From: Longimicrobiales bacterium
GTDB lineage: Bacteria > Gemmatimonadota > Gemmatimonadetes > Longimicrobiales > Gaopeijiaceae
Length of the DNA stretch: 33,177 nt
Direction: 5' to 3'
Assembly (NCBI GenBank): GCA_028278645.1
Contig: JANQDZ010000019.1
Location: forward strand, 1-33,177
A program made the translations under genes and the position numbers. Under the pieces are notes generated by a model. The model had not been told where the DNA came from. It saw nothing but the letters and a program-made list of their open reading frames with translations, and ran no database searches. Positions 15,979-20,267 of the stretch are shown here, in pieces (position 1 is the stretch's first letter; each line of letters opens with the position of its first letter).

Positions 15979-17211
15979 TTATTCGGGAACGTCCAGAAGC
16001 CCCTCGGGCAACTCCACCCCCTTCACTTCCAACACCCTCATGACCGCCTCTCCGATCTTGTTGTTGGGTGTAGAGGCGCCAGCGGTGATTCCAAGCTGGA
16101 AGGCTCCGTCCGGGAGCCAGTCGGTTTCCACCACCTCCGAAGCTTCCGGGTCCAACTCGGGCTTGTGTCGGATCGTTCCCTTTTCCACGTCGATGCAGAG
16201 TGCGTCTTCAATGTGGAAGGTCCGGGTGTGGCCTCTACACATGTGGGCCAGGTGGTTCGTGTTCGAGGAGTTGTAGCCCCCAATCACCACCATGACGTCG
16301 GGTGGGCATTCCATGAGCTCCATCACGGCGTCCTGCCGCTCCTGGGTCGCCGAACAAATGGTGTCGAAGGACCGATAGTGTTCCTCGGCGTGTTCTTCGC
16401 CGTACGCTTCAACAAAAGCTTCCCGGATCCTCTCGCCGATTGCCAGAGATTCGTTGGCGAGCATGGTGGTCTGGTTTGCGATTCCGATTTTCTCCAGCGC
16501 CCTGTCGGGATCAAATCCCTCGGTAGCCTTGGCTTTGAAGTGTGCGTAGAACTCGTCACGGGAGAGGTGGCCGGGGCCCTTGGTGATGTAGTCACAGACC
16601 AGCTCGGCTTCGTCCATGTTCTTGACGATCAGGTACTTCCCGCCGGGGTGCTTGTTTACCTGAGATGCCGTGGCTCGGGACTCCTCGTGGGTGTACTTCC
16701 CGTGGATGACTGCCGTGAACCCGTCTTTGGCGTAGCTCTCGACACGCTTCCAGACCACAAGTACGGAACCGCAGGTGGTGTCCACGAGGACACAACCGAT
16801 CTCCTTCAATCGGTTGAAGTCCCGGAGTCGTACGCCGAAGGCCGGGATAATCACCGCGTCTTCCGAAGTGACCTCGTCAAAGGAGAAGTGTCCGTCCTTG
16901 TCGGGGTAGATGAACTCGATGCCCATCTCCTGAAGACGGTGGTTTACGTGGGGGTTATGGATGATCTCCCCTACGAGGAAGATCTTCTTGTCCGGGAACT
17001 TGTGGCGGGTTTCATAGGCGTAGTCCACCGCCCGGTCCACGCCGTAACAGAACCCGAACTCTTTGGCGAGCCGGACTGTCACGTCGCCGAAGGTCTCCGT
17101 AAAACCCCGGGAGCGGATCAACTCCACCATACCCGATTGATATTCGGAGTCGATGAGGGGGCGAACTTCCGCCTTTAGGCCCAGACCGCTCCGGAAATAG
17201 GTCTTTTCCAT
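15979..17211 (-). CDS. ispH: 4-hydroxy-3-methylbut-2-enyl diphosphate reductase
   Basis: The last enzyme of the MEP isoprenoid pathway makes IPP and DMAPP from HMBPP using a [4Fe-4S] cluster. The three cluster cysteines are visible at C55 (FGFCYGVDRA), C147 (VDTTCGSV) and C286 (DTICSATQERQ). H85 in IIHNPHVN and H175-E in KYTHEES match substrate-binding positions. The product is 410 residues, longer than the E. coli enzyme (316) and like the long form of cyanobacteria and plants, with an N-terminal extension of about 45 residues and an insert around 210-240. The frame stays open upstream for another 217 codons across the divergent fxsA gene, but that part has no family similarity; the ATG at 17211 starts the conserved region. 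Confidence 0.95.
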   Translation of the reverse strand: MEKTYFRSGLGLKAEVRPLIDSEYQSGMVELIRSRGFTETFGDVTVRLAKEFGFCYGVDRAVDYAYETRHKFPDKKIFLVGEIIHNPHVNHRLQEMGIEFIYPDKDGHFSFDEVTSEDAVIIPAFGVRLRDFNRLKEIGCVLVDTTCGSVLVVWKRVESYAKDGFTAVIHGKYTHEESRATASQVNKHPGGKYLIVKNMDEAELVCDYITKGPGHLSRDEFYAHFKAKATEGFDPDRALEKIGIANQTTMLANESLAIGERIREAFVEAYGEEHAEEHYRSFDTICSATQERQDAVMELMECPPDVMVVIGGYNSSNTNHLAHMCRGHTRTFHIEDALCIDVEKGTIRHKPELDPEASEVVETDWLPDGAFQLGITAGASTPNNKIGEAVMRVLEVKGVELPEGLLDVPE

Positions 17212-17265
17212 ACGTACCCGAGACCCCGCCGGACCCTTCTTGTTCCCGGCTGGGTATCTCCCTCC

Positions 17266-17829
17266 ATGTCTATGCTGAGCCGCCTTTTTCTCCTGTTTGT
17301 CGGCGTCCCTCTCCTGGAGTTGTACATCCTGGTCAAGGTAGGTCAATACGTAGGTGTTCTGCCTACGATCGGCCTGGTGGTCCTGACAGGTGCCGCCGGG
17401 GCCGTCCTCGCCCGTCTGGAGGGATTGCGGACCATCTGGAAGTTGCGGAGTGAGTTGGCCCAAGGCCGGCTTCCGGGAGGCGCTCTCCTGGACGGGTTTG
17501 CGATTCTGGTGGGCGGAGCCCTCCTCCTGACCCCCGGAATCCTGACCGACGTGGTGGGATTCTCCTTCCTCCTTCCCCCCACAAGAAAGCTCCTCATGGG
17601 TCGAGTTCGGCGGGGGCTGGAAAAGCGCCTGAAGTCCGGGGCTATCCGCATTACCCATGTGGGTGGTTTTCCGGGCGGTGGTTTCGGGCCCTTTGGCCCG
17701 GGTCCCGGTGGCCCTCCCCAACCGGGAGAGCCCGAGAGCGAATGGAGCCCCGGTCCCTCCGAAGGCACGGAGGCCTTGGACCCTTCCGGCGAAATCGTCA
17801 TCGAGTCCGACAAAGGACAAGAGGACTGA
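17266..17829 (+). CDS. fxsA: FxsA family inner-membrane protein
   Basis: The 187-residue protein has the FxsA pattern: a short N-terminal helix with PLLELYILV, then VGVLPTIGLVVLTGAAGA (second helix), a cytoplasmic helical segment, and the LLLTPGILTDVVGFSFLLPPTR hydrophobic region shared by the family. E. coli FxsA was named for suppressing phage T7 exclusion by the F plasmid when overproduced; its normal role is unclear. The last 60 residues are rich in Gly, Pro and acidic residues and look disordered, a longer tail than usual. It is divergent from ispH, with a 54-bp shared promoter region. ATG codons at 17266 and 17272 are both possible starts. Confidence 0.9.
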   Translation: MSMLSRLFLLFVGVPLLELYILVKVGQYVGVLPTIGLVVLTGAAGAVLARLEGLRTIWKLRSELAQGRLPGGALLDGFAILVGGALLLTPGILTDVVGFSFLLPPTRKLLMGRVRRGLEKRLKSGAIRITHVGGFPGGGFGPFGPGPGGPPQPGEPESEWSPGPSEGTEALDPSGEIVIESDKGQED

Positions 17830-17941
17830 GGCGATGGTCTCCTGACTTCTGGTCTTCCACAAACATCTCTCCTACCTTCCCATCCTTCAGACTTTAAGGA
17901 CCTTCTCTTCGACCGATTACCCCAGGCACCGAGGTAGCGTC

Positions 17942-19110: not shown

Positions 19111-19581
19111 ATGATCGATACGACGAAGCTGGTGACGGAACTCCAGGAGATGAGGGACGAGGGCTACTTGTCCGACGCCCTTCTCCGATATGCGGTCCGG
19201 AACGTGAAGGAGCTGGACGACCGGTTCGACTGGGTGGGTGGTTTCCTCCTGGACGAGGAAGGCAAAGAGCTCTGGCTGCACAACTATGTCGGGCCCCGGA
19301 CGGAGCACGCAAAGATCCCGGTGGGTGAGGGGGTAACCGGTAGGGCGGTAGCTGAGGCGAGTAACCAGAACGTTCCCGATGTCAGCCAGATCGACTACTA
19401 CATCGAAGACTCGTCGGGTATGTCTTCAGAGCTGGTGATCCTGATCCGGGCGGGCGACGACATCTTCGGCGAGATCGATATCGACTCCATGGAGCCGAAC
19501 GCCTTCACACCGGAAGATGAAGAGGCAATCGGCATGGTAGCCGACAAGCTGGCAGAGCAGATCGCGTCCGAGCGGCGCTAG
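19111..19581 (+). CDS. Single-domain GAF protein, fRMsr-like but without cysteines
   Basis: The 156 residues form one GAF domain. The order of motifs (FDWVGGFLL, KIPVGEGVTGRA, NVPDVSQID, SSELVILI, GEIDIDSM, FTPEDEE) follows free-methionine-R-sulfoxide reductase (fRMsr, E. coli MsrC/YebR) closely. That enzyme uses cysteines in its CxRIPxGRGVCG and HIACDAAS motifs; here these read HAKIPVGEGVTG and YYIEDSSG, and the whole protein contains no cysteine. It therefore cannot work as that reductase and more likely binds a small ligand or acts as a structural relic. No partner domain is fused. Its stop codon abuts the inverted-repeat element that follows. Confidence 0.85.
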   Translation: MIDTTKLVTELQEMRDEGYLSDALLRYAVRNVKELDDRFDWVGGFLLDEEGKELWLHNYVGPRTEHAKIPVGEGVTGRAVAEASNQNVPDVSQIDYYIEDSSGMSSELVILIRAGDDIFGEIDIDSMEPNAFTPEDEEAIGMVADKLAEQIASERR

Positions 19582-19943
19582 AAGAGTGTTGGGAAAAGGG
19601 GGCGAGCCGCGTTACGAGCGCCAGGGGGCCGCAGGCAAGGCGGGGCTTCGCTGGCATAGCCATGCGCTACGTCGAGAAGTCCCAACGATGCCTACGGTCC
19701 CGTGCCGCCGAGCCGAGCGGCCTGCCCGCTGGCAGGTTCGTGGTGGTCTTCCGCGAGACCGCCAAGCGAAGCGCAGGCGAAACCCGTGGGGCACAGGGAG
19801 GTTGCGCCGCTATACTGCGTCATGACTCCTCCCCGATGCTTCAGCATCGCATTCGTCGTCCTTCCTTGTCTAGCATCCGCAAGCCGGGCACCGCTGCGGA
19901 GCAGTGGTCGTGCGGGGCCGCACCCCCTCTTCGCAACACCCTT
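19582..19943. mobile_element. Structured inverted-repeat element (MITE-like or structured RNA candidate)
   Basis: These 362 bp fill the space between the GAF stop and the convergent PadR stop exactly. The outer 23 nt (19582-19604) and the reverse complement of 19921-19943 match at 19 of 23 positions around a TGTTG core. Inside are several hairpins: CCTGCC/GGCAGG at 19721-19736, CGATGCT/AGCATCG at 19834-19849, ACCGCTGC/GCAGTGGT at 19890-19908 (one G-T pair) and GTGCGG/CCGCAC at 19910-19923. A long-range pairing joins 19645-19654 with 19762-19772. No open frame here has a ribosome site or family motif. I see no target-site duplication. It could be a non-autonomous transposon, a repeat-family member or a structured transcript. 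Confidence 0.6.
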
Positions 19944-20267
19944 TTATGCCATCTTTTTGTGTGACGAAGGCAGGTCGCCCAGCAATTGCCTGACCTCCGA
20001 GAGCTTCTTCTCCGCGACGGGGATATTCTCCCACCCCTCATCCGTCAGCTCATACGTCCGGCGCCGGGGCCTCCCCTCGGCATGGGCCTCCGATGCCTGC
20101 TCCCACCGGGATTTGAGAAGCCCGGCCTTCTCGAGACGACGCAGGGCCGGATACACGGTCCCGCTCGGCAAAGCACATGCCTCCATTACATCAAAGCCGT
20201 AACGGTGACCGGCCGCCACGACCTTGAGCACCAGGGCCGTGATCTGTGTCATTCGCACCGAAGCCAC
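19944..20267 (-). CDS. PadR family transcriptional regulator
   Basis: A 107-residue winged-helix protein matching the PadR N-terminal domain. It has a helix with HRYGFDVMEA, the recognition region LPSGTVYPALRRLEKAGLL that is the family signature, and a wing with RPRRRTYELTDEG. The short C-terminus (about 85-107) gives the dimerisation helix, as in the small PadR-s2 group. These proteins often respond to phenolic acids or drugs and repress adjacent genes. The start is taken as GTG 20267, four bases behind GGGAGAG; an ATG at 20252 is the alternative. It is divergent from the PD40-FGE-MBOAT-SGNH operon across 224 bp, so that operon and its own gene are the natural candidate targets. Confidence 0.87.
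   Translation of the reverse strand: MASVRMTQITALVLKVVAAGHRYGFDVMEACALPSGTVYPALRRLEKAGLLKSRWEQASEAHAEGRPRRRTYELTDEGWENIPVAEKKLSEVRQLLGDLPSSHKKMA

What the first reader, a model, noticed from the sequence alone, without database searches (positions are those of the whole stretch)
19582..19943. Non-coding element with terminal inverted repeats and a chain of hairpins, fitted exactly between two convergent stop codons
Seen: a 23-nt imperfect inverted repeat (19/23) bounds the block. At least four near-perfect short hairpins and one long-range pairing lie inside, and the ends touch the GAF and PadR stop codons with no spare bases. No frame in it has a ribosome site or recognisable domain. Known: MITEs and REP/BIME-type repeats favour convergent intergenic sites. 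Inference: it is either a non-autonomous mobile element or a structured RNA that also separates the two transcripts. The density of hairpins is much higher than anywhere else in the window.
Basis: partly seen in the sequence, partly recalled or inferred. Interest (0 to 1): 0.6.

Follow-up and report, generated by a model that had tools for sequence, protein, structure and literature searches.

The report
Small transposons with shared folded core
The block joins halves of two copies of a widespread, gene-less jumping DNA element whose interior carries a strongly conserved folding motif that is missing from the RNA-family catalogue and is shared by elements with unrelated ends, so an unknown functional RNA or DNA fold may be travelling with several kinds of bacterial transposon.

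Summary
The block is real and non-coding. It belongs to a repeat family: 20 core matches in its own genome, present in 27 of 59 related genomes searched, and in named Gemmatimonadota MAGs plus a few MAGs labelled otherwise. Intact copies are MITEs: 275-390 nt, near-perfect terminal inverted repeats, inserted at TA. Alignable sites in two congeners are empty, most with a single TA. TA plus the element's first base (G or A) rebuilds TAG/TAA, which explains the exact fit to stop codons (9 of 16 copies).

In three relatives the same terminal repeats flank a full insertion sequence with an IS5/IS1182-type transposase. No such gene was found in the own genome.

The window copy is a chimera. Its left end matches a half-element at the end of contig C89, its right end one at the end of contig C3; both partners carry the neighbours expected from a congener. 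This is recombination or misassembly, so the convergent GAF/PadR arrangement may not be original.

Inside lie two inverted copies of an 86-nt core: 18 of 29 pairs show two-sided changes, internal-loop bases are nearly invariant, and mismatches are strand-specific. It is absent from Rfam. The same core occurs in elements with unrelated ends. Its role is unknown.

The parts
19579..19946 (.). whole element with its flanking TA on both sides; a chimera of the left half of copy E1 and the right half of copy E2
19581..19602 (+). left terminal repeat, GAAGAGTGTTGGGAAAAGGGGG; belongs to copy E1, partner end at the end of contig C89
19923..19944 (-). right terminal repeat, read on the minus strand as AAAAGGGTGTTGCGAAGAGGGG; belongs to copy E2, partner end at the end of contig C3
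19620..19706 (+). core domain 1, sense on the plus strand (R1, 82.6 bits)
19800..19884 (-). core domain 2, inverted, sense on the minus strand (R1, 25.8 bits, E 4e-8 for 501 bases)
19726..19786 (.). 61 nt of the central module that are identical to the end of contig C89; lies at or just left of the changeover from E1 to E2
19579..19581 (+). GAF stop codon TAG = target TA plus first element base G; a TAG stands at the same codon in congener G001
19944..19946 (-). PadR stop codon TAA = flanking TA plus terminal element base A

Best explanation
The block is the junction of two copies (E1 left half, E2 right half) of a non-autonomous transposon family (MITE) of Gemmatimonadota. Shown: intact copies are 275-390 nt with near-perfect 20-25-nt terminal repeats; they sit at TA sites that are unoccupied in congeners; and TA plus the first element base (G or A) restores TAG or TAA where a stop codon was the target. 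Inferred: they are moved in trans by IS5/IS1182-type DDE transposases of insertion sequences with the same ends, as still seen in three relatives; the source transposase is missing from this genome. Shown: the interior has two inverted copies of an 86-nt core that folds on its own strand, with changing stems and fixed internal loops, and the same core sits in single-core elements with different ends. Inferred: the core is a functional single-strand fold (RNA read from flanking transcription, or extruded DNA) that benefits the element, which is why active lineages and elements with different ends keep it.
For: Copies; matching ends; empty sites; stop codons shared with the element in 9 of 16 copies and a stop at the same codon in the relative; same ends on full insertion sequences in G031, G051, G017 (33, 57) with DUF772 transposases, two of them with DDE_Tnp_1; core covariation far above shuffled and slid controls and strand-specific mismatches; chimera.
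Against: No transposase of these families in the own genome; no transposition observed. Presence of the element and of IS1182-type hits is only weakly associated across relatives. The two-base TA duplication is short, and not every copy keeps TA on both sides. The end-identity is partly selected for by the way elements were picked. The core's benefit is pure inference.
Confidence: 0.88

Rival explanations
1. The core is needed for transposition itself: the displaced strand folds and the folded DNA is what the transposition machinery or a host factor recognises.
For: Strand-specific fold with tandem G.A mismatches, which DNA can also form; kept in mobile lineages (48, 67).
Against: Two-base TA target and DDE-type ends imply double-strand end recognition (general knowledge); the same core sits under unrelated ends; end-only remnants exist but may be immobile.
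Confidence: 0.25
2. The core is an RNA made by read-through or from its own promoter, acting as a small RNA or processing site.
For: G.U strongly preferred over A.C on the sense strand; each strand of long elements has one sense core near its 5' end; MITE-derived small RNAs exist in Coxiella (PMC5896051).
Against: No promoter or terminator match in the window copy; no expression data; no Rfam match.
Confidence: 0.45
3. The structure is a by-product of palindromic DNA: arms copied from each other, with no selection on folding.
For: Arms match within elements and differ between them.
Against: Arm copying predicts equal G.T and A.C and equal G.A and C.T; observed 18:2, 23:3 and 37:4. Internal loops are asymmetric and nearly invariant.
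Confidence: 0.05
4. A host regulatory or terminator RNA that separates convergent genes.
For: Position at gene ends.
Against: Multi-copy with empty sites, no T tract, position explained by TA in stop codons; GAF/PadR neighbours come from a chimera.
Confidence: 0.04
5. A decayed protein gene.
For: ORFs of 79 and 100 aa overlap it.
Against: Substitutions follow base pairing and not codons; insertions at TA leave a clean empty site.
Confidence: 0.01

Closest known systems
MITEs with TA ends: Correia/NEMIS, ERIC, RUP (PMC2229807)
   Same: Short, no gene, inverted ends, TA at the termini, intergenic, stem-loop interior; RUP shares ends with an insertion sequence (IS630-Spn1)
   Different: Family sequence differs (no match in E. 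coli genomes, where ERIC occurs); longer; two inverted copies of a covarying core; ends of IS5/IS1182 type; core shared across different end types
QMITE elements of Coxiella burnetii (PMC5896051)
   Same: MITEs whose transcripts fold strongly and can become small RNAs
   Different: Reported only in Coxiella; 2-4 or 7-9 bp duplications; no cross-phylum conserved motif described in the passages read
Caulobacter CIR repeats (PMC2229807)
   Same: Two stem-loop arms joined by a linker, conserved structure across genera
   Different: CIR lacks terminal repeats and carries a GANTC motif in one loop
IS110 bridge RNA (PMC11208160, title and abstract only)
   Same: A structured RNA with covarying stems and internal loops that travels with a transposon
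   Different: Here loops are fixed and stems vary, the ends are DDE-type inverted repeats with a TA target, and no recombinase gene is in the element

Membership tests
MITE | Short, multi-copy, without a transposase gene | tested here: met
MITE | Terminal inverted repeats | tested here: met
   near-perfect in intact copies; 19/23 in the window because of the chimera
MITE | Target-site duplication and empty sites | tested here: met
   TA; five empty sites aligned across the junction
MITE | Ends shared with an autonomous element | tested here: met
   G031, G051, G017; not met within the own genome
MITE | Typically AT-rich (PMC10969869) | tested here: not met
   67% G+C; not a defining feature in a G+C-rich host
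ERIC | Family consensus, present in E. coli | tested here: not met
   megablast against 5,426 E. coli genomes: no match; only near identity was searched
Rfam families (release 15) | Score above a family's model | tested here: not met
REP/BIME with RAYT transposase | Short GTAG-headed hairpins and a Y1 (RAYT) transposase | not tested
   no Y1 transposase search was made; the TA target and long matching ends argue against it (inference)
IS630 mobilisation of single-core elements | Same ends as an IS630 copy in one genome | tested here: inconclusive
   similar ends in relatives only

The most novel reading that the evidence does not exclude
The 86-nt core is a new class of functional RNA (or a structure-specific DNA module) that acts as a selfish passenger: it has been taken up by small transposons moved by unrelated transposase families, in Gemmatimonadota and other phyla, because it gives any carrier an advantage.
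Probability: 0.35. Interest if true: 0.85.

Novelty: new variant of a known kind. Interest (0 to 1): 0.62.

Why it matters
MITEs are usually seen as parasites defined by their ends, with filler inside. Here the interior is more conserved than the ends: the same strand-specific fold with nearly invariant loops sits in elements with several unrelated end types, in genomes of quite different base composition. That suggests an interior function that can be tested directly. The rebuilt stop codon is a simple, testable way for a TA-targeting element to sit harmlessly at gene ends of a G+C-rich genome. The chimeric copy also warns that 'fits exactly between two genes' in a draft genome can come from a join between repeat copies.

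Tried and rejected
IS630 as the mover of the own-genome copies: no DDE_3 or IS630 hit, and no IS1182 or DUF772 hit either. Phage or plasmid origin: no match. Known RNA families: none. A search of the fetched loci for full-length elements with the same ends gave only loose matches. RNAalifold on the MAFFT alignment A1 found helices P3 and P4 but not P2, because the arms were misaligned; an anchored, gap-free comparison recovered P2 (402 Watson-Crick cells against a shuffled mean of 265, largest 299). Literature searches for Gemmatimonadota MITEs, IS1182 MITEs, or MITEs with conserved RNA structure found no description of this family; only open-licence papers were covered.

Full report
OBSERVATION. 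It is also more stable than any of 91 equal tiles of the window, but only slightly more than the next best.

A REPEAT FAMILY. BLAST against the own genome (G000; the window is contig C24) gave full-length copies at 80-88% identity and many partial ones. Copies are either about 345-390 nt or about 275 nt, the shorter lacking a central module. Deletion remnants of 43-60 nt with only the two ends also exist. Nearly all hits are MAGs named Gemmatimonadetes, Gemmatimonadales, Gemmatimonadota or Longimicrobiales; a few are labelled Sediminibacterium, Bacteroidetes, Acidimicrobiia, Gammaproteobacteria or Proteobacteria (MAG labels can be wrong, but L092, L098 and L122 carry cores of 30-36% G+C). None was found in viral contigs, phages or plasmids or E. 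coli genomes.

ENDS, TARGET AND EMPTY SITES. Intact copies have near-perfect 20-26-nt ends, in most own copies flanked as TA-RAAGGG...CCCTTY-TA. Joined flanks of own copies were searched in two congeners. Five sites align across the junction without the element: L002, L003, L004, L005 and L007. In L003, L004 (G001), L005 and L007 a TA stands at the junction; a sixth, L010, aligns to a gene that ends there in TAG. Where the TA lies in a stop codon, TA plus the first element base (G or A) gives TAG or TAA again. Nine of 16 own copies share TA with a stop codon of a neighbouring ORF, and in the relative a stop sits at the same codon for the GAF gene, L003, L004, L005 and L010. This explains the exact fit without any regulatory purpose.

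WHO MOVES IT. In three relatives the same outer sequence borders a full insertion sequence and a core-bearing element in one genome: CTAGCAGGTCGCTGAAAAAG in G031 (L219 and L290), TAGGGAAGCTCTGCACA in G051 (L207 and L282), CTAGAAGGCTGTTGAARAA in G017 (L197 and L065). The proteins have DUF772, two of them with DDE_Tnp_1; two exceed the NCBIfam IS5 cut-off and the third scores best, below cut-off, with IS1182. The own genome has no DUF772, IS1182, IS630 or DDE_3 hit, so its source is lost or unassembled. Single-core elements have other ends, several similar to those of IS630 copies in relatives (CTAGTGTNNNGT); that link was not shown within one genome.

THE WINDOW COPY IS A CHIMERA. In congener G001 the GAF gene is followed by a different gene; its counterpart in the own genome lies at C89:5829-7327, directly beside a half-element that ends contig C89. 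That half is identical to window 19726-19786 for 61 nt; the next best of the own copies compared shares 16 nt. In G001 PadR is followed by another gene; its counterpart lies at C3:31293-32543, directly beside a half-element that ends contig C3. The window left end matches the C89 end (GTGTTGGGAAAAGGGGG) and the window right end matches the C3 end (GTGTTGCGAAGAGGGGG). So E1 (between GAF and its C89 neighbour) and E2 (between PadR and its C3 neighbour) are joined in the window, either by recombination in the cell or by the assembler. The present data cannot decide which.

THE CORE. Alignment of 34 diverse cores shows fixed AGGC/CAACG and CATAGC...GCTACGTCGAG with freely changing stems (most rows were collected with a pattern that requires these letters, so their fixity is partly by selection, whereas the stems were not selected). 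With a stated structure on 26 sequences, 91.1% of cells are paired (74.4% in shuffles), 18 of 29 pairs have two-sided changes, and covariation is 0.414 against 0.122; no shuffle and no slid version comes near. A second set of 21 cores, mostly not used for the model, gives 89.3% against 65.0% and 0.590 against 0.144 (that alignment was fitted to the model and so leans towards it). The changes are strand-specific: in helix P3, counted on anchored sequences without a model, G.U 18 against A.C 2; in the second set G.U 23 against A.C 3 and G.A 37 against C.T 4. A double-stranded palindrome or arm-to-arm copying would give equal numbers, so selection acts on a folded single strand, RNA or DNA. Tandem A.G/G.A mismatches recur at one place in helix P2. 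Long elements carry a second, inverted core, so each strand has one sense core near its 5' end (in the window 19620-19706 + and 19800-19884 -). Dispersed own-genome copies still keep about 96% of pairs (469 of 488 cells). The model finds the core in 27 of 59 relatives and 37 of 249 genomes sampled from the phylum, including other families of the class. Rfam has no match.

MECHANISM. Shown: mobile family, TA target, stop-codon rebuilding, same ends as IS5/IS1182-type elements in relatives, strand-specific conserved fold, chimeric window copy. Inferred: trans-mobilisation by those transposases, and an element-level benefit of the core. The insertion sequences tested had no core match, so the core is not simply part of the parent transposon. 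Whether it acts as RNA or as single-stranded DNA is open.

NOVELTY. The class (MITE with TA ends) is known (PMC2229807, PMC10969869), and MITE-derived structured RNAs are known (PMC5896051). New, as far as this search reaches, are the family itself, the conserved core outside Rfam, and its presence under different ends.

Noticed in passing
L002, L007, L008, L067, L148, L150 (inside element copies): A small hairpin of the form CCGGGCACC...GGTC(G) is inserted at different places in different copies, as if a still smaller palindromic repeat nests in these elements.
   Followed up: no
L302:1391-1548, and the centre of long copies such as window 19710-19782: A module like GAGCCGAGC...CGAGAC...AGCGAAGCG.GG occurs between the two cores of long copies and also inside the core of the C3 copy; it may be a movable guest.
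   Followed up: no
window 15979-17862 (-): A 627-aa ORF whose C-terminal part (residues 263-608) matches LytB/IspH, with about 260 further N-terminal residues that have no Pfam match.
   Followed up: no
relatives G003, G009, G023, G025, G029, G037: Many cores lie within about 150 bases of contig ends, which suggests recent near-identical copies that break assemblies and perhaps ongoing activity.
   Followed up: no
L092, L098, L122 (MAGs labelled Sediminibacterium or Bacteroidetes): AT-rich single-core elements with ATACCAA...TTGGTAT ends keep the loop bases while the stems have switched to A-T pairs; their transposase is unknown.
   Followed up: partly
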